DNA of 57,985 nt from a virus: positions 1 to 57,985 of IMG/VR virus record IMGVR_UViG_3300010397_000011; one strand, written 5' to 3'. The position numbers and the translations under genes were made by a program. How positions within the stretch are numbered: position 1 is the stretch's first letter; every line of letters starts with the position of its first letter. The notes under the pieces were generated by a model. It was not told the DNA's origin. It did not search any database and was given only the letters and a program-made list of their open reading frames with translations. Shown here piece after piece: positions 34,787 to 43,030 of the stretch.

Positions 34787-35040
34787 CGCTCGGCCTCCTC
34801 GTCGTAGCGGGCCTCGGCCGTGATGCCGTGGACCATCTGTCGGGCGAACGTCTGTGCCGTGAGGAGGTCGTCGATCGCGAGGCCGAGGTACGTGTCGACC
34901 GCGGCCCACGACGACGCGTTCATCGGCTGGGCGCGTCGGCGGTTGAGTGTCGTGGTCGCGCGGCGCAGGGAGGCCGAGGCTCCCTGCATCCGCTCGATCG
35001 TCTGGACGTGGGCTCGGTGGGTTGTGAGTTCGTCAGGCAT
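34783..35040 (-). CDS. Small helical protein, unknown
   Basis: 85 residues from ATG 35040, which carries the start-associated sequence GAGAGAGACC. The helices (MPDELTTHRAHVQTIERMQG, WAAVDTYLGLAIDDLLTAQ) have no recognisable motif. Confidence 0.55.
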   Translation of the reverse strand: MPDELTTHRAHVQTIERMQGASASLRRATTTLNRRRAQPMNASSWAAVDTYLGLAIDDLLTAQTFARQMVHGITAEARYDEEAER

Positions 35041-35377
35041 GGTCTCTCTCTTCCTTCTCGGTGACGATGTCCATGAGGGCATCGAGGATGTCGTGGGGGT
35101 CGACGTCGTGGGGCCAGCCCTGCCGTTCGAGCGGGGTCGGTCCGTGCGTCGACAGTTCGGGGTCTTGCTCCCAGTCGTAGGGGGCTGGGGTCGGGGTGAC
35201 GATGCGGAGGTGGGATCGCGGGAAGGTGGTCGTCGCGTTCCGCTCCATCAACGCGAGCGGCGTGGGCCGGTGGGCCTCGCACGAGTACCACACCTTCGGT
35301 CCCGTGTTCGGCGCGTCGGCCTGCTCGATGTGGACTGCGGGCTCGTCGCAGCCGGGGTAGTCACAGAGGCGAGTCAT
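35033..35377 (-). CDS. Small zinc-ribbon-like protein
   Basis: 114 residues from ATG 35377. MTRLCDYPGCDEPAVHIEQ and later WYSCEAHRP form a Cys-x4-Cys ... Cys-x2-His metal-binding pattern. Unknown function. Its end overlaps the next start. Confidence 0.6.
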   Translation of the reverse strand: MTRLCDYPGCDEPAVHIEQADAPNTGPKVWYSCEAHRPTPLALMERNATTTFPRSHLRIVTPTPAPYDWEQDPELSTHGPTPLERQGWPHDVDPHDILDALMDIVTEKEERDHA

Positions 35378-35526
35378 CGTCCGCCCTCCCACACGAGGGC
35401 GCAGTCAGCGCACGGGCACGTCACGTGGAACGGGTGGACCGGCGGCAGTAGTCGCGGCCGGACCGAGTTGTCGAAGCGGACTTCGACGCCGCGCTCGAGG
35501 GCGGAGAGAAGGTCGGTGAGTGTCAT
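35374..35526 (-). CDS. 50-residue protein with CPCADC
   Basis: ATG 35526 with AAGGGACC ahead. MTLTDLLSALERGVEVRFD is followed by VTCPCADCALVW. Stop overlaps the next start (ATGA). Function unknown; probably metal-binding. Confidence 0.55.
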   Translation of the reverse strand: MTLTDLLSALERGVEVRFDNSVRPRLLPPVHPFHVTCPCADCALVWEGGR

Positions 35527-35540
35527 GGTCGTGGTCCCTT

Positions 35541-35849
35541 TCAGATCGGGTTCCCGGCTGAGCCGGTGAGGTCATGGACGAACACGAGGTCGCGGTCGCA
35601 GACCTCGTGGCACTCGGCAACGTGGACGGTCATGCCCGTGGTGTTGCGCACACGGTCGGCCCACTGCTCCGCGGCCCGCCTGCCCATGTGAGCGGCGGCC
35701 CTCGGGTTCGCGGTCCACGCGAAGTCACCGACGGACGGGTAGTGCTTGACGAGGTACCGCTCGGGCCACACGCGCCGTTGCAACGTGTAGGCGGGGTACT
35801 GGACGACTTCGTCGAGGACGACGATGTAGGGGTTCTTCGGCTTGGTCAC
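35541..35849 (-). CDS. Unknown small protein
   Basis: 102 residues from GTG 35849 (GTGA overlap). VTKPKNPYIVVLDEVVQYPA and AAAHMGRRAAEQWADRVRN, ending CDRDLVFVHDLTGSAGNPI. No family recognised. Confidence 0.5.
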   Translation of the reverse strand: MTKPKNPYIVVLDEVVQYPAYTLQRRVWPERYLVKHYPSVGDFAWTANPRAAAHMGRRAAEQWADRVRNTTGMTVHVAECHEVCDRDLVFVHDLTGSAGNPI

Positions 35850-36196
35850 GACTGCACCTCCTCGTCTGCGAGCAACGGGTTCGGCACCCACTCGCCGTCG
35901 ATCTTCACCTCGGGTTCCAGCACGACCGGCCTGGCCGCGTGCTGCTCGTCGAACTGCGCGGCGCGGGCGCCGTCACCCTTCGATGTCAGGCGCGTCTTGC
36001 GGGTGCGCACCGGCTTGACGTGCTCGACGGTCATCGTCGCGTCGACGACTTCGTACTCCCCCTCGTCGACGGTGATCGCGTCGAGGTTGTCGATGTCGAT
36101 CGCGTTCTCGATCTGTTCCGCGATCGCGTCGTTGCTCGCGAACTTGCCGGAGGTGAACTGCACCTCGATGTCGATGGTCACTGTGAACCTGGGCAT
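35846..36196 (-). CDS. Unknown small acidic protein
   Basis: 116 residues from ATG 36196. A short beta-strand/acidic helix start (MPRFTVTIDIEVQFTSGKFA, AIAEQIENAIDIDNLDAIT) with a more basic tail. Coupled to the upstream 55-residue gene by a one-base gap. Confidence 0.5.
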   Translation of the reverse strand: MPRFTVTIDIEVQFTSGKFASNDAIAEQIENAIDIDNLDAITVDEGEYEVVDATMTVEHVKPVRTRKTRLTSKGDGARAAQFDEQHAARPVVLEPEVKIDGEWVPNPLLADEEVQS

Positions 36197-36197
36197 C

Positions 36198-36365
36198 TCA
36201 TTCTCCTGTCTCTGTCGTGATCGTGTTCTCGGTGAGGATGCGGTCGCACGCGTCGAGGAAGACGTCGGCAGCTACGACCAGCGGGTGAGGTGGACGGGTG
36301 GACTTCACCAGCGGCTCGACCCGTTCGGTCGCGCGCGCGGTCGGGGTGATGGTCGGTGATGGCAT
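36198..36365 (-). CDS. 55-residue protein behind RNA element A
   Basis: ATG 36365 with the start-associated sequence GAGAGAGAGACC. MPSPTITPTARATERVEPLV then a hydrophobic helix (PLVVAADVFLDACDRIL). It is the first gene downstream of the structured element at 36380-36450, so may be its regulated target. Confidence 0.55.
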   Translation of the reverse strand: MPSPTITPTARATERVEPLVKSTRPPHPLVVAADVFLDACDRILTENTITTETGE

Positions 36366-36379
36366 GGTCTCTCTCTCTT

Positions 36380-36450
36380 TCCAGAGCCTGAGGGCTCCGT
36401 GCGGGGCACCGATCCCGAGGAGGGACCGATGCCCCGAGGCGCAACCTTCA
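36380..36450 (-). ncRNA. Structured RNA element, copy A
   Basis: Minus strand, 5' to 3': TGAAGG, TGCGCCT, a 15-bp hairpin (36402-36436, loop of five, with G-U pairs), GCAC, then GAGCC-loop-GGCTC. The loop CCCTCA (36389-36394) can pair with TGAAGG (36445-36450) except for one mismatch. Same plan as copies B, C and D. It lies ahead of the 55-residue gene with a GAGAGAGACC ribosome site. Confidence 0.75.
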
Positions 36451-36494
36451 GGGGCGCCCAGGGGTGCCGCTAGGGCGCCGCTGGGGGGGCCGAA

Positions 36495-37451
36495 CTACAG
36501 CCCACGGACAAGGGCCACTGCCTTCGCCTTCAGGGGCTCAGGGCGCAGCAGGGTCCGACCGAGGTAGGTGTCGGAGTTCCGGTAGCCACGGGCGTGGTCG
36601 AGGTACTCGACGGCCGCGTCCACGAGGCCGAGCCCCGTGCCGCGGTGCCCGTCCGTCGTCAGGCTGTCCATGTAGATGTGGCGGAAGATCGAGCGGGCCT
36701 CCTCGATGTTGTCGCGGACCCGATCCGAGAACGTGCCCTCAGGCGGGGCGGGGATGAAGTCGCTGACGAAGTGGTTGAACTTCACCTCGTCGATCTTCAT
36801 CCCGAACAACTCGGTGGCCAACTCCTGCCACGCCTTGAACTCGTCGCGCACACCGGCCATCGCCGCCTTCGCCTCGTCGATCCGACCGAGGACGTCGCCG
36901 GTGTGGCGGAACACGAACTGGCGGCCCGTGCGGTCGCCCTCCATGCTGGCGGCCTGGTAGGTGTTCCAGCAGACGACGCGCACTGAGGTCGGGAGGACCT
37001 TGCACGCGCCCTCGCCGTTGTGGGAGTTGAGGAACGCGATGAACGGGTAGGTCTCGGTGTCGTCACCGCAGATGACTTCGGGCTCGTCGAGGTAGGCGAC
37101 GGCCCACACCTGCGCTCCACCCTTGCATGAGCCGGCGGTCTCGAACTTCGCGCCGAGGCCGAGGATGACCTCGATCACTTCGCCCATCACTCGGTTGGGC
37201 ACGAGGCCGAACGTGTCGGACACGGGGCCGAGGGGTGCTTGCGTGTCGTCACGCACGACGACCTGATGGTCGGTGAGGGCGACGAAGTCGTCGCCGATCT
37301 TGTGGTACAGGGGCCGGAGTTCCGGCTCCCACGTCAGGCCAGCCTTGACCCTGGCGTCTTCCCAGTCGGTCGGGTAGTCGTCGAGCACGAGCCCTTCGCC
37401 GTGCCACATCGGCTGACGAACGCTGAATCCGGTGTCGAAGTATGCGGGCAT
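36495..37451 (-). CDS. DUF932 family (phage/plasmid-like TIGR03299) protein
   Basis: 318 residues from ATG 37451 with start-associated sequence GGAGAGAGACC. It begins MPAYFDTGFSVRQPMWHGEG, typical of this family, with LGPVSDTFGLVPNRVMGEVI (the VSxxYxxxxN-like core), GAQVWAVAYLDEP and LPTSVRVVCWNTYQAA. The family is common in phages and plasmids, with unknown function, perhaps in DNA protection. Element B precedes it. Confidence 0.85.
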   Translation of the reverse strand: MPAYFDTGFSVRQPMWHGEGLVLDDYPTDWEDARVKAGLTWEPELRPLYHKIGDDFVALTDHQVVVRDDTQAPLGPVSDTFGLVPNRVMGEVIEVILGLGAKFETAGSCKGGAQVWAVAYLDEPEVICGDDTETYPFIAFLNSHNGEGACKVLPTSVRVVCWNTYQAASMEGDRTGRQFVFRHTGDVLGRIDEAKAAMAGVRDEFKAWQELATELFGMKIDEVKFNHFVSDFIPAPPEGTFSDRVRDNIEEARSIFRHIYMDSLTTDGHRGTGLGLVDAAVEYLDHARGYRNSDTYLGRTLLRPEPLKAKAVALVRGL

Positions 37452-37469
37452 GGTCTCTCTCCTTTTCGG

Positions 37470-37534
37470 TGGAGCCTGATTGCTCCGTGCGTGGCACCGA
37501 CCGATCAGGCCGGTGCCACGAGGCGCAACAATCA
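37470..37534 (-). ncRNA. Structured RNA element, copy B
   Basis: Minus strand: TGATTG (37529-37534, containing the stop codon of the upstream gene), TTGCGCCT, a 13-bp hairpin (37490-37520: CGTGGCACCGGCC/GGUCGGUGCCACG with loop TGATC), then GGAGC-loop-GCTCC. The loop CAATCA (37477-37482) is the exact complement of TGATTG. Placed 19 bases ahead of the DUF932 start. Confidence 0.8.
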
Positions 37535-38116
37535 CGCGGTCTTCTTCGCTGCTCCCTTCTTCGGAATCGGGGTGACCTCGCGCTTGCTGGCCGGGGTCTT
37601 CTTCGCCGCGGCCTTCGCCGGGGTCTTCTTCGCCGTCTGCTTCGCGGCGGGCTTGCGGGTGACCTTCTTGACCGGCTCGGCCTCGGTGGTCTCGGCGCTG
37701 GTCGCCTCGTCGGTGGAGGGCTCCTCAACCTTCTGACCCTTCACCGTCGCGATCCCGTGGGCCGCGTTGATCGCGTCCAGGTTCGGGGTGTCGGGCAGGG
37801 GCTCGCCGTTCGCCTTCGCGGTCTTCAGTGCGCGGGCCTCGGCCATCGCGAGGTTGAGCACCTCGACCGGCGCGACCTTCCGTGCCTTCTTGCCACCGCT
37901 GCTCTTGCGGCCCTCGCCGCGGGGTGCGGGCTCGGGCAGATCGATCGGGGTCCACTTCTTCCCGTCGCGGACGAACATCTCCCGCATCGGCTTCTGGACC
38001 TTCTTGCCGGTTGCCTCACGGCACTCGTAGCAGTGGGGGGTCCGACTGGCCGGAGGCTGGTCGGCCTCGACCTCACGGGAGTGTCCGCACGTCATGGTGA
38101 ATCGGTAGGTGGGCAT
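37532..38116 (-). CDS. Zinc-ribbon protein with histone H1-like tail
   Basis: 194 residues from ATG 38116 with GAGAGAGACC. N-terminus: MPTYRFTMTCGHSREVEADQ and PHCYECREATGKKVQKPMRE give Cys-x-His ... Cys-x2-Cys. The C-terminal third is Lys/Ala/Pro-rich (VTRKPAAKQTAKKTPAKAAA, KKTPASKR), like bacterial histone H1 homologues, so it should bind nucleic acid non-specifically. The stop codon forms part of RNA element B. Confidence 0.65.
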   Translation of the reverse strand: MPTYRFTMTCGHSREVEADQPPASRTPHCYECREATGKKVQKPMREMFVRDGKKWTPIDLPEPAPRGEGRKSSGGKKARKVAPVEVLNLAMAEARALKTAKANGEPLPDTPNLDAINAAHGIATVKGQKVEEPSTDEATSAETTEAEPVKKVTRKPAAKQTAKKTPAKAAAKKTPASKREVTPIPKKGAAKKTA

Positions 38117-38151
38117 GGTCTCTCTCTTTCGTAAGCCGTCACTGTGACGGT

Positions 38152-38215
38152 CGGAGCCTGAGTGCTCCGTGCGTGGCGCGGACCCGAGGGCCCGTGCCAC
38201 GAGGCGCACCACTCA
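38152..38215 (-). ncRNA. Structured RNA element, copy C
   Basis: Minus strand: TGAGTG (38210-38215, containing the stop codon of the upstream gene), GTGCGCCT, a 13-to-14-bp hairpin (38172-38201, one A-C mismatch), GCAC, GGAGC-loop-GCTCC. The loop CACTCA (38159-38164) is the exact complement of TGAGTG. A further perfect hairpin (CCGTCAC/GTGACGG, about 38137-38151) follows before the zinc-ribbon gene start. Confidence 0.8.
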
Positions 38216-38728
38216 AGCGAGGGTGTCGGTGGAGGGGTCGTACGTCGTGGAGCCCACGACTTCGAACATCGGGGCTCGGACGATGGGCTCGAATCGGTTC
38301 GGGTACAGCCGCTTCACTTCGGCCTCAGCCTCGGCCCGTGTCGCGTGGGTCGCGATGTGCAACTTCCTCCACACAACCCTGGTCGAGGAGAGCCGACCCG
38401 ACGCGTACCACGCGGCGGTCTCGTCGTCGTCGTCTCGGCCGAGGATCTTCACTGCTCGCACCGTGGTCTCGGTGGCGGCGCGGACTTGCATCGGGTTGCG
38501 CCGCACCTCCTCTTCCCGATGCTTGCTCGCCGTCATCAGGCCGACGAGGAGGACGTGGACTTCACGCTTCGTCAGGACCAGGGGCTCACGGGTTGAGTAG
38601 TCCGCGATCCACACGACCCACCGCTGGGCTCCCGACCTCGTGGTGCGCGGGAACCACTGGTCGATCTGCCCCGCGTCCACCGCTAGGTCCAGTCCGTTGC
38701 TTACAGATTCGTTCGTCAGATTCGGCAT
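38213..38728 (-). CDS. Unknown protein
   Basis: 171 residues from ATG 38728 with GGAGAGAGACC. MPNLTNESVSNGLDLAVDAG, RWVVWIADYSTREPLVLTK, ATHATRAEAEAEVKRLYPNRF. Mixed alpha/beta, probably soluble. Its stop TGA is the first half of the pairing in element C. Confidence 0.55.
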   Translation of the reverse strand: MPNLTNESVSNGLDLAVDAGQIDQWFPRTTRSGAQRWVVWIADYSTREPLVLTKREVHVLLVGLMTASKHREEEVRRNPMQVRAATETTVRAVKILGRDDDDETAAWYASGRLSSTRVVWRKLHIATHATRAEAEAEVKRLYPNRFEPIVRAPMFEVVGSTTYDPSTDTLA

Positions 38729-38738
38729 GGTCTCTCTC

Positions 38739-39215
38739 CTATCGGTTGCGCCGCTGTGCTGCGCGGCGGGCTTTCGCGTCTGCTGCCACTCTGTCCTTGC
38801 GGTTCTGAATCATCGCGGCGGCCTCCTCGGCCACTGCCCTGAACGCGTCATCGACCGAGACCTCCTCGTCTCCGATGAACGCACGGATCGAGGTGATCTC
38901 CCCGCTGTCGATGTCCCGCTCAAGGGAGTCGAGGGCGTCAGCCTTCGCGGCCCGCTCGACGAGGGACCGAAGGATGCGGTGCTCCCTCGCCAGGTTCTGC
39001 CGCTCTGCCGCGAACGCCGCGGCCTCAGCCGCGTGCCGGGCAATGAATGCGGGGTCGGTGGTGATGTTGAACCCGCCCTCGACTTCGGTGAGGGTGCGCT
39101 CGGCAATGCTGATGACCTCTCGGAGCTCCCGCTTCAGGGAGTCCTCGCTCGCCGCTTGCTCGGTCGCCATTGCGTCGAGCCGTTCGGCAATCAGTCGGTC
39201 GGTGTTGGTCGTCAT
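38739..39215 (-). CDS. Unknown coiled-coil protein
   Basis: 158 residues from ATG 39215 with AAAGGAC ahead. Almost all helix: MTTNTDRLIAERLDAMATEQ, LKRELREVISIAERTLTEVE, AAEAAAFAAERQNLAREHR, and a basic end (ARRAAQRRNR). Possibly a scaffold or nucleoprotein partner. First large gene downstream of the structured RNA. Confidence 0.55.
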   Translation of the reverse strand: MTTNTDRLIAERLDAMATEQAASEDSLKRELREVISIAERTLTEVEGGFNITTDPAFIARHAAEAAAFAAERQNLAREHRILRSLVERAAKADALDSLERDIDSGEITSIRAFIGDEEVSVDDAFRAVAEEAAAMIQNRKDRVAADAKARRAAQRRNR

Positions 39216-39228
39216 GGTCGTTGTCCTT

Positions 39229-39306
39229 TCAGAACAGGTTGCCCACCACGATGTGGTGGACGAGGTGGACGGTCAGGGCCAGGCGGTGCAGGGCGCACTG
39301 AAACAT
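39229..39306 (-). CDS. 25-residue leader peptide (candidate)
   Basis: ATG 39306 has GGAGAG seven bases upstream. It reads MFQCALHRLALTVHLVHHIV and ends VGNLF. Hydrophobic with several His. It ends 13 bases ahead of the next start, so it could be a leader peptide or small membrane protein between the structured RNA and the 38739-39215 gene. Confidence 0.4.
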   Translation of the reverse strand: MFQCALHRLALTVHLVHHIVVGNLF

Positions 39307-39349
39307 TGGTGCTCTCCGATCGGGTGGTCGTGGTCGTGGTCGTGGTCTC

Positions 39350-39780
39350 TGTCGTGGAGTGGAAGCACTCCGTGCGAGGCACCGACTGGGCGCAGCACAC
39401 GGTCACTGGGAATCGGGGCTCTCTTGTTTCAGCCCATCTGCCGGTCGCCCGGTTTCTTCTCCGTCCCTACGTGTGCTGCACCCAGCCGATGCCCCGAGGC
39501 GCAGGGCTTCACTGGTGTTGCAGCGGGAGTGTCGTGACGTTCGGGGTCACACACACTCTCGACTTGCTCGACTCCGCCCCTCACGGGACTTCGGGTAACA
39601 CGTGCACCCCGTCGCTCGGCTGCACTTCCCCGGACCTCCTGCACTTCGGCTCAGCCCTTGCATCACGCTCGGCCTTCGCAGGTCCCAGTCCGCTCTCAGT
39701 AGGTGGACTTCCCTTTGGGGGCTCCATCCCTACCTACCTCTTTAGTTTTCAAGGTTCTTTACCCCCCTAAAGGTAGGGTC
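39350..39780 (-). ncRNA. Large structured noncoding RNA including element D
   Basis: No open frame fits here; instead the minus strand folds repeatedly. A 12-base helix lies at 39767-39778/39733-39745. GNRA-type hairpins: CCT-GCGA-AGG (39673-39682), CCC-GTGA-GGG (39578-39587), CCGG-GCGA-CCGG (39441-39452). A hairpin at 39527-39558 (GAGTGT/ACACTC plus GTGAC/GTCAC) and GGGCT/AGCCC (39416-39435) follow. A 26-bp helix (39470-39495 with 39376-39401) contains four G-U pairs that would be A-C mismatches on the plus strand. Its 3' end has GGAGTG-CTTC-CACTCC and a GAAGC/GCTTC tie, the plan of copies A-C. Boundaries are approximate; function unknown. Confidence 0.75.
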
Positions 39781-39828
39781 GGGGCTGGGGCGATGCCACC
39801 ACAGACGCACATCCCGAGGACTTTGTTT

Positions 39829-39841
39829 GGCAGCAGCTGCC
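39829..39841. promoter_or_regulatory. Operator-like palindrome, copy 1
   Basis: GGCAGC-A-GCTGCC, a perfect 6+1+6 inverted repeat inside TTTGGCAGCAGCTGCCGAAA. The second copy is 114 bases away with the same flanks (TTGGCAGC-N-GCTGCCGA), which fits a dimeric repressor site pair. Confidence 0.5.
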
Positions 39842-39942
39842 GAAAGTTCGCGGCGCTCTGAGCAGGGGAAACGACCCAAAACGCCCAGCCCAGGGAGACC
39901 AACTTGACAGTTATCGGCGCCAGCGGAGAGCGGCTACAACTT

Positions 39943-39955
39943 GGCAGCCGCTGCC
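39943..39955. promoter_or_regulatory. Operator-like palindrome, copy 2
   Basis: GGCAGC-C-GCTGCC within CTTGGCAGCCGCTGCCGAGA, the partner of the palindrome at 39829-39841. Confidence 0.5.
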
Positions 39956-39995
39956 GAGAGCGACGAGCCCGGCAGATAGCGGGTGCTGTCTTTAA

Positions 39996-40478
39996 TCAGA
40001 CCGGAGTGAGGACCGCGGCGAGGAGCCCGCGCAGCGCGTCCATGTCGACGGCCCACGCCGCGCACGCGAGCGCGGACGTCGGCCAGTCGTCGTGCTTCCC
40101 GTAACCGATGATCGGCACGTCACGCTCGACCATCACGCTGGCCTCTTGCATCGTGCCGTCCGAGCCGGGGAGCACCACGCCGACCTCGGCCACTGACCCG
40201 ACGAGCGCGTTGCGAAACGGGATCGTCAGGCCCGTGCGGAGTGCGATCGACAGTCCGCTCGACGGCGGCTGATACGGAGACGCGGGGATCAGTCCGATCG
40301 CGAGCCCACCGACCGACGTCGCTCCTCGAGCAGCCGCGTCCATCACGCCGCCGAGCCCGCCGCACACGAGGGCCAGGTCGTCGCGCTCACCGACCACTCG
40401 GCCGACGTCGTACGCGTCGAGCTCTATCTCAGGGGGGCAGTTCTTCCCCTTGCCGATCACGCACACGACGCGCCTCAT
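39996..40478 (-). CDS. LOG/TIGR00725-like nucleotide-binding protein
   Basis: 160 residues from ATG 40478 (ATGA overlap). Rossmann start MRRVVCVIGKGKNCPPE, then LALVCGGLGGVMDAAARGA (the GGGxxGxM-like motif) and VVLPGSDGTMQEASV (PGGxGTxxE-like). It resembles TIGR00725/LOG SLOG-fold proteins, which bind nucleotides or cleave nucleoside phosphates. It closes the DpdA operon, so nucleotide or base handling for DNA modification is a reasonable guess. The LOG Gly-Gly is Gly-Ser here. Confidence 0.7.
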   Translation of the reverse strand: MRRVVCVIGKGKNCPPEIELDAYDVGRVVGERDDLALVCGGLGGVMDAAARGATSVGGLAIGLIPASPYQPPSSGLSIALRTGLTIPFRNALVGSVAEVGVVLPGSDGTMQEASVMVERDVPIIGYGKHDDWPTSALACAAWAVDMDALRGLLAAVLTPV

Positions 40479-40744
40479 GCGAGACACCCTGCGTGGCTGA
40501 GGAGCGCGTAGCAGAACGCGAACGTGAGTACCTCTTTGCGGATGCGAGGATCGTCGAGCGGGACTCCCTCCGCGCTCATGGCGGTGATCTTGTCAGAGCA
40601 CTTCGTCTGGATGATGGCGAGCACGGCCGCCTCGACGCCAGCGTCAGCAATCGCGGACCAGGCTTGCACCGGGCCGTGGATGTGCAGCGTGCATCCCTGC
40701 ACGCTCTGCCTCAGCCGATCGGCAAGGGCCTCGGCGTCAGGCAC
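40475..40744 (-). CDS. Unknown small protein
   Basis: About 89 residues from GTG 40744, overlapping the FolE stop by 8 bases. VPDAEALADRLRQSVQGCTL and HIHGPVQAWSAIADAGVEA, ending in a hydrophobic helix (VLTFAFCYALLSHAGC). Unknown; in the modification operon. Confidence 0.5.
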   Translation of the reverse strand: MPDAEALADRLRQSVQGCTLHIHGPVQAWSAIADAGVEAAVLAIIQTKCSDKITAMSAEGVPLDDPRIRKEVLTFAFCYALLSHAGCLA

Positions 40745-41372
40745 CGAACACGTGAGGCTTCGAGGTGGCGAGGGACTGGAACTCCCGCCGCCACGGGTCA
40801 TCGCGCAGGATGCCCCGATACCCGGTGACGACGACGACCTCCTGGCTCGGCGCGTTGGACTTGCAGATCAGACACATGTGGATCGACGCGAGGGAGAGCG
40901 CGACGCCCTTCGGTTCGAGCACCGCTTCGAGCGCGTCGAGGGTGTCGACGAGCAGACGCTCGTTCAACTGCGGCTGGCGTGCGAGGTAGTTCAGTCCCTT
41001 CTTCACCTTCGAGTACCCCGTGATCTTCTGGTCGGGCACGTACGCGAAGTGGGCCACGCCGAGAGCGGGCATCAGGTGGTGCTCGCACATCGACACGTAG
41101 TGGCAGTCCGTCACGGTGATGAGGACGTCGTCCTTCGCTGGGTTCGGGAACGTCTTCCACGGGATCTCGATGTCGCACCACGCCGCGTTGATGATGTCGC
41201 CGTACATCTCCGCGATGCGCCGTGGAGTGTTCGCCATCACCTCGGCCTTGTCGGACTGGCCGAGCCCTTGAAGCAGCAGGGTCACGCCACGCTCAAGCGT
41301 GTCGAGGTCGACCGGCTTCGGCGGGAGCGGCGCGCCGACGGGGGCGTGGTCGTTGTTCGTGACGGTGGTCAT
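40737..41372 (-). CDS. folE: GTP cyclohydrolase I
   Basis: 211 residues from ATG 41372. It opens the guanine ring of GTP to give 7,8-dihydroneopterin triphosphate, the first step to 7-deazaguanines. ANTPRRIAEMYGDI and ITVTDCHYVSMCEHHLMPA are diagnostic; zinc ligands are Cys96, His99 and Cys167 (HMC), and KITGYSKVKKGLNYLARQ is the family core. The usual RGV after the last Cys is replaced by KSN. In phages folE is usually joined by queD, queE and queC; these are absent here, so the host would supply later steps. Confidence 0.94.
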   Translation of the reverse strand: MTTVTNNDHAPVGAPLPPKPVDLDTLERGVTLLLQGLGQSDKAEVMANTPRRIAEMYGDIINAAWCDIEIPWKTFPNPAKDDVLITVTDCHYVSMCEHHLMPALGVAHFAYVPDQKITGYSKVKKGLNYLARQPQLNERLLVDTLDALEAVLEPKGVALSLASIHMCLICKSNAPSQEVVVVTGYRGILRDDPWRREFQSLATSKPHVFGA

Positions 41373-42143
41373 TCAGGTTCCTTTCACCATTGCGTCGAGG
41401 GTGTCGGTCCAGAGTTGACGTCGAGCCATGACGGCCGCGACCGCGGCGCGCCGGGCTGACGTCCAGTCCTCCTCGGTTTCGCACACGGCCTCGACCAGCC
41501 CGCGGGCCAGCGGCCCGTGGCTCTCACCGTCGAGTTCGATGTGCCTGTCGAGGTAGTGGCGCAGGGTCGCGCCACCGTTGCTGAGCCCAGCGAGGAGGGG
41601 CTCGAACATGGCGGGGATCAGTTGCTCGCGTCCGAGCGTGAACGCCGCGGCGATGGCGGGCAGGTTGCCCGTGCCGATGATCCCGAACGTGGTCGTGAGG
41701 AACCGCTCGGCGCCCGGCGGTGCGCCGAACTTCCGTGCGATGCGGGGCACCTCGGGGAGATGCCACTGCTGGCCTGGCGCGTGGAGGTGGCGAAGGGTCG
41801 CGTCGATGGCGGTGAGGTTCGCACCGGCCTCGACCATCGCCAGCCGGTACATCGACACGTGGTCGATGAACCCCTCGCCGTAGGTGTCGCACTCCTCGCC
41901 GGTCTTGATCTCGTTCACGAAGCGGGCCGCGGCCGGCGACCGTGACGGGAGCCACGGGACGGACGTGCACGTCGTGCGCAGCTGCAACGCAGTGAGCAGA
42001 GACATGAAGTCCCACACGGCCCACACGTGGTGCTCCATGAACAGGCGCAGGCGGGGCAGGGAGTCGAGCGCGTAGTAGAGCGGGTGCCCGACCACCTCGG
42101 CGCGTGTCGGTGCGACCGCTTCGGCCAGGTCGTCGAACGTCAC
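41373..42143 (-). CDS. DUF3050 family (haem-oxygenase-like diiron fold) protein
   Basis: 256 residues from GTG 42143 (GTGA overlap). It matches DUF3050: LRLFMEHHVWAVWDFMSLLT, VNEIKTGEECDTYGEGFIDH, AAFTLGREQLIPAMF and HYLDRHIELDGESHGPLA. The Glu/His spacing in those helices (E-H, E-H, D/E-H) fits haem-oxygenase-like diiron oxidases, so an oxidase or oxygenase role is possible. I know no phage role for the family. Coupled between DpdA and FolE, it may act on the modified base or its precursor. Confidence 0.82.
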   Translation of the reverse strand: MTFDDLAEAVAPTRAEVVGHPLYYALDSLPRLRLFMEHHVWAVWDFMSLLTALQLRTTCTSVPWLPSRSPAAARFVNEIKTGEECDTYGEGFIDHVSMYRLAMVEAGANLTAIDATLRHLHAPGQQWHLPEVPRIARKFGAPPGAERFLTTTFGIIGTGNLPAIAAAFTLGREQLIPAMFEPLLAGLSNGGATLRHYLDRHIELDGESHGPLARGLVEAVCETEEDWTSARRAAVAAVMARRQLWTDTLDAMVKGT

Positions 42144-43030
42144 GCCGCTGCCCTCCGTTCGGCCAGGACCTGCACCGCGTTCTGTGGGAGGTCGAACCCG
42201 CCGCCGCTCACCGCGTACATCCGCAGGCCGGGTTCGTCGTCGGGCCTGTCGGCGCGCACGACGGGGCCGTGCCGTTCACGTGCCCACGCCTCGACCTCGC
42301 TGTAGGTCGCGAGGCCCAGCGCGTCACGCACGGGCAACGGTGGCCCGCCGCGTCGGCCGCCGTACAACTCGCGTGGCTCGAACCCGAGGCGGCGCAGGAG
42401 ACGGCCGTGCTTCGCCATGCTCACGTTGTCACCGATGCGGACCTGCTCGCTCCGTCCCGTCGTGGAGTCGAACAGCGGGTAGTAGCCCCAGCGTCGACCG
42501 GCCAGCCACGACGAGGAGTCCACGCTGTAGAGCGGGAGCCCGCCGAGCACCGCGTCACCCGTCGCGCCGAGCCCGTGCCACACGATCTCGCTGCCCTTCA
42601 CCCGCATCATCGAGTCGACCATCCACCGCATACACACCGACGGCGGGACACCCGTGCCAGCCATCCCACCGAGACAGCCGTACGGGTACTCGGCCGCGAT
42701 CTTGCGCAGCACCTTCGGGTCCTCGTCGCGCATGTGGTAGACGGGCAGCACCGCGCAGCCCAGCCGTTCGAGCGTGCGCTGGTTCGCCATCGTCCCTTTC
42801 GAGTTGCCGATGACGTCGAGGTTGCACGCCGCGCTGAACAGGTGCTCCCACTTGTGGAGCCAGGCCGCGTACTCGTCGCACGTGATGACCGCGCCCTTCG
42901 TCATCGCTGAGTAGGCGCCCGAGTCCGCCCACATGTCGGGAGGCTCCCCGTCGATCGAGCAGCGGCGCGCGAACTCGTCGAGGTCGTGGTCGCGGTAGTA
43001 CCAGTACGAGAGCAGCAGCCGAACCCTCAC
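42140..43030 (-). CDS. dpdA: DpdA-like DNA guanine transglycosylase
   Basis: 296 residues from GTG 43030. Phage DpdA proteins are TGT-fold enzymes that swap guanine in DNA for a 7-deazaguanine base. Visible motifs: WADSGAYSAMTKGAVITCDEY (TGT DSGG-type acid), NLDVIGNSKGTMANQRTLE, IVWHGLGATG, and PLYSVDSSSWLAGRRWG (conserved Asp). ARERHGPVV precedes a short C-terminal region. It is coupled to a ParB-like gene upstream and DUF3050 downstream, forming a modification operon with folE. Confidence 0.85.
   Translation of the reverse strand: MRVRLLLSYWYYRDHDLDEFARRCSIDGEPPDMWADSGAYSAMTKGAVITCDEYAAWLHKWEHLFSAACNLDVIGNSKGTMANQRTLERLGCAVLPVYHMRDEDPKVLRKIAAEYPYGCLGGMAGTGVPPSVCMRWMVDSMMRVKGSEIVWHGLGATGDAVLGGLPLYSVDSSSWLAGRRWGYYPLFDSTTGRSEQVRIGDNVSMAKHGRLLRRLGFEPRELYGGRRGGPPLPVRDALGLATYSEVEAWARERHGPVVRADRPDDEPGLRMYAVSGGGFDLPQNAVQVLAERRAAA

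What the first reader, a model, noticed from the sequence alone, without database searches (positions are those of the whole stretch)
36380..39512. Four-copy, covarying, pseudoknot-capable RNA element ahead of early genes
Minus strand, each copy has the plan TGAnnn - TGCGCCT - CG-rich hairpin 1 - GCAC - GGAG-nnnTCA-(g)GCTCC. The loop nnn of hairpin 2 tracks the nnn after TGA: TGATTG/CAATCA (37529-37534, 37477-37482), TGAGTG/CACTCA (38210-38215, 38159-38164), TGAAGG/CCCTCA (36445-36450, 36389-36394, one mismatch) and GAAGC/GCTTC in copy D. Hairpin 1 also covaries (GGGGC/GCCCC against GTGGC/GCCAC), and the hairpin 2 stem is GGAGC/GCTCC against GGAGTG/CACTCC. In copies B and C the TGA is the stop codon of the gene upstream, so translation termination could compete with the fold. 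Three copies lead directly into GAGAGAGACC-ATG starts. I cannot name a known RNA family for it.
Basis: seen in the sequence. Interest (0 to 1): 0.93.

Follow-up and report, generated by a model that had tools for sequence, protein, structure and literature searches.

The report
Repeated stem-loop between phage early genes
An uncultured phage carries four copies of one folded RNA element between its neighbouring genes; it is a real, new, conserved stem-loop rather than the proposed pseudoknot, and most likely marks where a long multi-gene message is cut or controlled.

Summary
The four copies are real, on the sense strand, and match no Rfam family. Near-relative contigs add eight more: twelve copies at five gene junctions in three phage genomes, none elsewhere in my scans. 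A model trained only on window copies A-C finds the others at E 3e-8 to 7e-19. TGAnnn/nnnTCA covariation is genuine (43 of 48 cells paired; 16 of 40,320 permutations do as well). The pseudoknot reading is not supported: these bases form the foot of one long nested stem (TGANNGTTGCG/CGGAGCNNTCA) below an internal loop and hairpin 1. That fold keeps 14 of 22 pairs through two-sided changes and is the more stable in every aligned copy; the helices unique to the pseudoknot show none. 'Hairpin 2' (GGAG/CTCC) is a competing or post-cleavage fold. The TGA is the upstream stop in only about half of the copies, and GAGAGACC-ATG is a genome-wide start motif, six of whose nine copies lack the element. 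Best explanation: an intergenic mRNA-processing stem-loop laid out like T7's RNase III sites. A sequence-specific protein operator is the main rival. Nothing about transcription or cleavage could be tested here.

The parts
36383..36452 (-). Copy A: lower stem CCTGAAGGTTGCG (36452-36440) with CGGAGCCCTCAGG (36399-36387), internal loop CCTC / GCA, hairpin 1 (36435-36403), tail CTCT (36386-36383). Upstream stop is TAG at 36495, so the TGA here is not a stop codon in use.
37471..37536 (-). Copy B, ahead of the DUF932/TIGR03299 gene. TGATTGTTGCG pairs with CGGAGCAATCA; TGA (37534-37532) is the stop codon of the upstream gene; tail CTCC 37474-37471.
   Evidence: (83.3 bits)
38153..38217 (-). Copy C. 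TGAGTGGTGCG pairs with CGGAGCACTCA; TGA (38215-38213) is the stop codon of the upstream gene; tail CTCC 38156-38153.
   Evidence: (81.1 bits)
39356..39513 (-). Copy D at the 3' end of a noncoding leader. GAAGCC (39510-39505) pairs with TGCTTC (39367-39362); tail CTCC 39359-39356.
   Evidence: (found only in pieces, best 18.7 bits, because of the insertion); orthologs in L028 and L029 intact
39391..39480 (-). 90-nt structured insertion at the tip of hairpin 1 in copy D (TGCAGCACACG...CGTGTGCTGCG), absent from the orthologous copies in L028 and L029.
39515..39770 (-). Conserved noncoding leader upstream of copy D, with shared blocks ACCTGCGAAG..AAGGGCTGAG.CGAAG.GCAGGAG and TGCAACAC, in all three genomes.
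   Evidence: (z = -4.0 for 39342-39770)
38213..38728 (-). 171-aa gene upstream of C, no known family; starts with GAGAGAGACC-ATG and has no element in front.
37532..38116 (-). 194-aa gene between C and B (Cys-containing N-terminus, Lys/Ala-rich tail), no known family.
36495..37451 (-). DUF932 / TIGR03299 phage-plasmid protein between B and A.
36198..36365 (-). 55-aa ORF after copy A.

Best explanation
Each copy is a roughly 65-70 nt stem-loop in the polycistronic sense transcript: a lower stem of about 10-12 pairs with a constant G.G mismatch, an asymmetric internal loop (CCTC(G) against GCA), and an upper stem of 9-15 pairs. I propose that it works as mRNA punctuation like the T7 early-region RNase III signals. 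A host double-strand endonuclease would cut on the 3' side of the internal loop. The upstream message would keep hairpin 1 as a protective 3' end. The downstream message would start near CGGAG...CTCC, which can then fold into 'hairpin 2' as a 5'-terminal hairpin just before the start region. At D the same cut would free the leader RNA. Shown: the fold, its covariation, sense strandedness, junction location and gain or loss at junctions. Inferred: transcription as one unit, cleavage, the enzyme, and any effect on stability.
For: Fold: 22-pair nested structure with 92% of cells paired, 14 pairs with two-sided changes, 0 of 500 shuffles as good, far above slid controls; found without constraint by RNAalifold. 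Sense strand favoured. Between orthologous C copies TGAGTG/CACTCA became TGAGCG/CGCTCA, and D of L029 changed G15 and C56 together. Folded side by side, five of the six T7 stretches that I placed around recalled RNase III cut positions give a similar layout of lower stem with mismatches, small internal loop and upper stem of 9 bp or more; the sixth, R0.7, did not fold so, probably because my recalled position is off. [quoted passage not shown] The element sits only at gene junctions, and no sigma-70-like promoter was found in 35000-40600. It appears or is missing at orthologous junctions (A missing in L029, E only in L028). The model accounts for both alternative folds, precursor and products.
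Against: No transcript or cleavage data. RNase III needs little sequence, yet TGCGC and GCACGGAG are almost invariant, which suggests a more specific partner. The internal-loop asymmetry (longer on the 5' side) is the reverse of the predicted fold of T7 R1.1. Only three related genomes; copies are not independent, and two copies in L028 resemble each other more than their orthologs in hairpin 1, so common descent or gene conversion explains part of the likeness. The annotated T7 record used here does not mark the RNase III sites, so their positions come from memory except R1.1.
Confidence: 0.42

Rival explanations
1. A sequence-specific RNA-binding protein (phage translational repressor, stabiliser or antiterminator) recognises the internal loop and the flanking invariant TGCGC / GCACGGAG, so that several early genes are controlled together.
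For: Near-invariant internal-loop flanks while hairpin 1 pairs vary freely. In L028 hairpin 1 of both B and C changed to the same GAAGGCAGGG form while their lower-stem bases stayed site-specific, as expected if one partner reads several sites.
Against: No candidate RNA-binding protein identified. The sequence likeness is also explained by common descent or gene conversion. No promoter or terminator signal ties it to antitermination.
Confidence: 0.27
2. A translation-coupled switch: the ribosome ending at TGA opens the lower stem, GGAG then pairs with CTCC, and access to the downstream start changes.
For: TGA is the upstream stop in B, C (two genomes) and E; the lower stem and GGAG/CTCC are mutually exclusive; blocking the first 12 nt shifts A, D (L028) and C (L029) to GGAG/CTCC.
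Against: TGA is not the stop in A, D and C of L028. Predicted start-region access does not change in one direction across copies (some registers in that script were off by a few bases, so it is weak evidence). Pseudoknot-only helices lack covariation.
Confidence: 0.12
3. A DNA-level feature: inverted-repeat protein-binding sites near starts, as proposed for ESAS of Cluster K mycobacteriophages.
For: Repeated inverted repeats upstream of start codons in an actinophage-like genome, with presence or absence at orthologous genes, as for ESAS (PMC3203893).
Against: G-U pairs and compensatory changes favour the sense RNA; the antisense folds are weaker. The ESAS authors found that departures there do not support RNA pairing.
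Confidence: 0.08
4. A small dispersed repeat that spreads between junctions without a regulatory role.
For: Copies gained or lost at junctions; within-genome similarity of hairpin 1.
Against: Site-specific compensatory changes in the lower stem imply selection on pairing; always the same orientation and position relative to genes.
Confidence: 0.07

Closest known systems
Bacteriophage T7 early-mRNA RNase III processing signals (R0.3, R0.5, R1, R1.1, R1.3)
   Same: Several copies at junctions of one early transcript; about 50-60 nt irregular stem-loop with mismatched lower stem, small internal loop and upper stem of 9 bp or more; copies share sequence.
   Different: No sequence relationship; loop asymmetry reversed relative to R1.1; here a conserved downstream CTCC offers a competing hairpin; cleavage untested; unrelated phage and host.
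SAS / ESAS of Cluster K mycobacteriophages (PMC3203893)
   Same: Start-associated short repeat at many genes plus a longer inverted repeat upstream of some; here GAGAGACC-ATG at nine starts, the stem at three of them; loss at single orthologous genes.
   Different: Motif sequences differ (GGGATAGGAGCCC there); ESAS departures do not support RNA pairing, here compensatory changes do.
Repeated intergenic regions of Gordonia phages CaiB (DR) and Vardy (DJ)
   Same: Repeats ahead of a subset of genes in actinophages; CaiB copies end with GAGAGGAC before the start (PMC9302106).
   Different: The CaiB blocks quoted in the paper do not resemble this stem; the Vardy motif is promoter-like with TATAAT (PMC9671010).
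HK022 put RNA
   Same: Phage early-operon structured RNA acting in cis, more than one copy per phage (recalled knowledge).
   Different: Recalled as two separate hairpins acting on RNA polymerase; no direct comparison was made here.

Membership tests
T7-type RNase III processing signal | Irregular stem-loop: lower stem, internal loop, upper stem totalling about two helical turns | tested here: met
   10-12 + 9-15 pairs around an internal loop.
T7-type RNase III processing signal | Location between genes of a polycistronic phage transcript | tested here: inconclusive
   Junction location met; single transcript not shown.
T7-type RNase III processing signal | Cleaved by RNase III inside the internal loop | not testable with these tools
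   Needs enzyme or transcript ends.
   no two-sided changes in either helix; TGC/GCA never varies.
   nested lower in energy in all 11 copies with usual penalties (rough estimate; margin near zero for D of L029 at the smaller penalty).
SAS/ESAS of Cluster K | GGGATAGGAGCCC next to the start codon | tested here: not met
   Start motif here is GAGAGACC.
SAS/ESAS of Cluster K | Inverted repeat whose variation does not support RNA pairing | tested here: not met
   variation supports RNA pairing.
Any Rfam 15 family | Score above the curated threshold | tested here: not met
   none in the whole window; only unrelated sub-threshold matches.

The most novel reading that the evidence does not exclude
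A new class of phage cis-regulatory RNA that switches between a long nested stem and a 3' GGAG/CTCC hairpin at several gene junctions, read by one trans-acting phage or host factor that recognises the invariant internal loop, so that one signal sets the expression of a whole early operon.
Probability: 0.17. Interest if true: 0.7.

Novelty: new variant of a known kind. Interest (0 to 1): 0.45.

Why it matters
Multi-copy, site-specifically covarying stems at gene junctions would give actinophages a T7-like way of cutting or tuning a long early message, for which I found no description in the papers searched. The compensatory changes supply ready pairs of mutants for testing. The case also shows how a loop-strand complementarity that looks like a pseudoknot can be the foot of an ordinary stem.

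Tried and rejected
Pseudoknot: rejected as main fold. Shine-Dalgarno sequestration by CTCC: not consistent across copies. Known RNA family: none. Presence in bacterial genomes or prophages: pattern scan of genome contigs gave only chance-like matches; 297 genomes of one actinobacterial order gave nothing with the model, but the tool notes that an empty answer there shows little. Presence in Microbacterium phages that carry DUF932 relatives, and in more distant DUF932 contigs L030-L032: no convincing copy; the 17.5-bit match in the contig of L031 lies in what looks like coding sequence. A look-alike ahead of DUF932 in L032 (TGCGCC...GCACG) was not recognised by the model. Resemblance of copy D's insertion to an L032 leader: only second of 2,548 compared stretches, so inconclusive.

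Full report
What the window is. The window is a 57,985-base virus record in IMG/VR, a dsDNA tailed phage with nearly all genes on the minus strand. It encodes a terminase, a DUF932/TIGR03299 protein, a helicase, a Gam-like protein and a FolE-like enzyme. Its closest named relatives are remote: terminase about 31% identical to Microbacterium phages, DUF932 about 38%. An actinobacterial host is an inference.

The copies. Two IMG/VR contigs carry orthologous regions: 3300035073_000021 (loci L003, L007, L028) and 3300044728_000132 (L013, L029). L028 has five copies (A to E), L029 three (B, C, D). At the A junction L029 has instead a simple perfect hairpin; at the E junction the window and L029 have no element. 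Strict pattern scans of viral contigs found true copies only in these genomes, and 73 matches in genome contigs looked like chance. A model built from window copies A-C alone finds all eight copies in the two relatives at E 3e-8 to 7e-19, so the family is real.

Pairing. The bases TGANNG and CNNTCA match in 43 of 48 cells over eight distinct versions; only 16 of 40,320 re-pairings do as well. In D the TGA/TCA part itself has changed together (GAAGCC/TGCTTC), and between orthologous C copies TGAGTG/CACTCA became TGAGCG/CGCTCA. Copies A, B of L028, D and E each keep one mismatch.

Which fold. RNAalifold without constraint places these bases at the foot of a nested stem that continues through TTGCG/CGGAG, with a constant G.G mismatch, up to an internal loop and hairpin 1. 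Counted on alignment A4, this 22-pair stem has 14 pairs with two-sided changes, 0 of 500 shuffles as good, covariation score 0.440 against 0.174 shuffled and at most 0.125 for slid versions. The pseudoknot alternative shares the TGANNG pairs and hairpin 1, so it scores well too (0.372), but its own helices TGC/GCA and GGAG/CTCC add no two-sided change. Pairs special to the nested stem do: 15-56 (G-C to A-U in D of L029), 3-68 and 4-67 (the last two weakly, with several mismatches). A rough energy comparison favours the nested fold in all 11 aligned copies. I therefore read GGAG/CTCC as a competing or later fold. Its CTCC is kept in 9 of 11 copies, so it may still matter.

RNA, not DNA. Sense folds are more stable than antisense by 5.2 kcal/mol on average (Wilcoxon p = 0.0024; 12 non-independent copies), and copies lie 3-7 SD below shuffles.

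Surroundings. GAGAGACC-ATG precedes nine ORF starts, chance expectation 0.05; six of the nine have no element. It is a start-associated motif of this phage, not part of the element. TGA doubles as the upstream stop in B, in C of the window and L029, and in E, but not in A, D or C of L028, so stop-codon overlap is not essential. Copy D ends a conserved structured leader of about 250 nt or more.

How it may work. The layout, repetition at junctions and gain or loss resemble T7's RNase III signals, whose R1.1 member is cut on one strand and drives maturation and protection of T7 messages (PMC8708148). I folded T7 stretches around cut positions recalled from memory; five of six gave a similar layout, while R0.7 did not, probably because of a wrong position. 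In this model the precursor is the nested stem and the products are hairpin 1 at the upstream 3' end and GGAG/CTCC at the downstream 5' end. This explains both folds, but cleavage is inferred. The strongest point against it is the near-invariance of TGCGC and GCACGGAG, which an operator for a specific protein would explain better. Hairpin 1 of B and C changed alike in L028 while lower stems stayed site-specific, which fits either such a partner or gene conversion.

Known kinds. ESAS of Cluster K mycobacteriophages are the nearest actinophage parallel, but their variation does not support RNA pairing and their start motif differs (PMC3203893). CaiB and Vardy repeats differ in sequence.

Limits. 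Three genomes, copies related by descent, no expression data, host unknown, no metagenome scan available. Register errors of a few bases in the script make its switch test weak for B and C of L028 and B of L029.

Noticed in passing
window 39515-39770 (-); L028 3268-3663; L029 4150-4533: Conserved, highly structured noncoding leader (window 39342-39770 folds at z = -4.0) with shared blocks such as ACCTGCGAAG and AAGGGCTGAG, no Rfam match; may be a new phage leader RNA.
   Followed up: partly
window 39391-39480 (-); L032 4420-4520: Insertion in copy D shares GGAGAAGAAACC, AGGGACGGA and GGCAGAT with an L032 leader in permuted order, as if a three-way junction had been circularly permuted; only second-best of 2,548 control stretches, so a lead.
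   Followed up: partly
window 8594, 35038, 36363, 37449, 38114, 38726, 51150, 52671 (-) and 52782 (+): GAGAGACC-ATG precedes nine ORF starts, 0.05 expected: a start-associated motif like the SAS of Cluster K phages.
   Followed up: yes
L028 5221-5287 and 5920-5986 versus window and L029 copies B and C: Within-genome likeness of hairpin 1 between B and C (GAAGGCAGGG in L028, CTCGTGGCAC in the others), as in gene conversion or co-evolution with one partner.
   Followed up: partly
window 39996-43030 (-): Cluster with GTP cyclohydrolase I (weak QueF similarity), DUF3050, a SLOG/TIGR00725 protein and an unassigned 296-aa protein; possibly a nucleotide or 7-deazaguanine modification pathway, not shown.
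   Followed up: partly
L028 3769-4173: L028 carries one or two extra small genes between D and E; copy E follows them directly, as if gene and element were gained or lost together.
   Followed up: no
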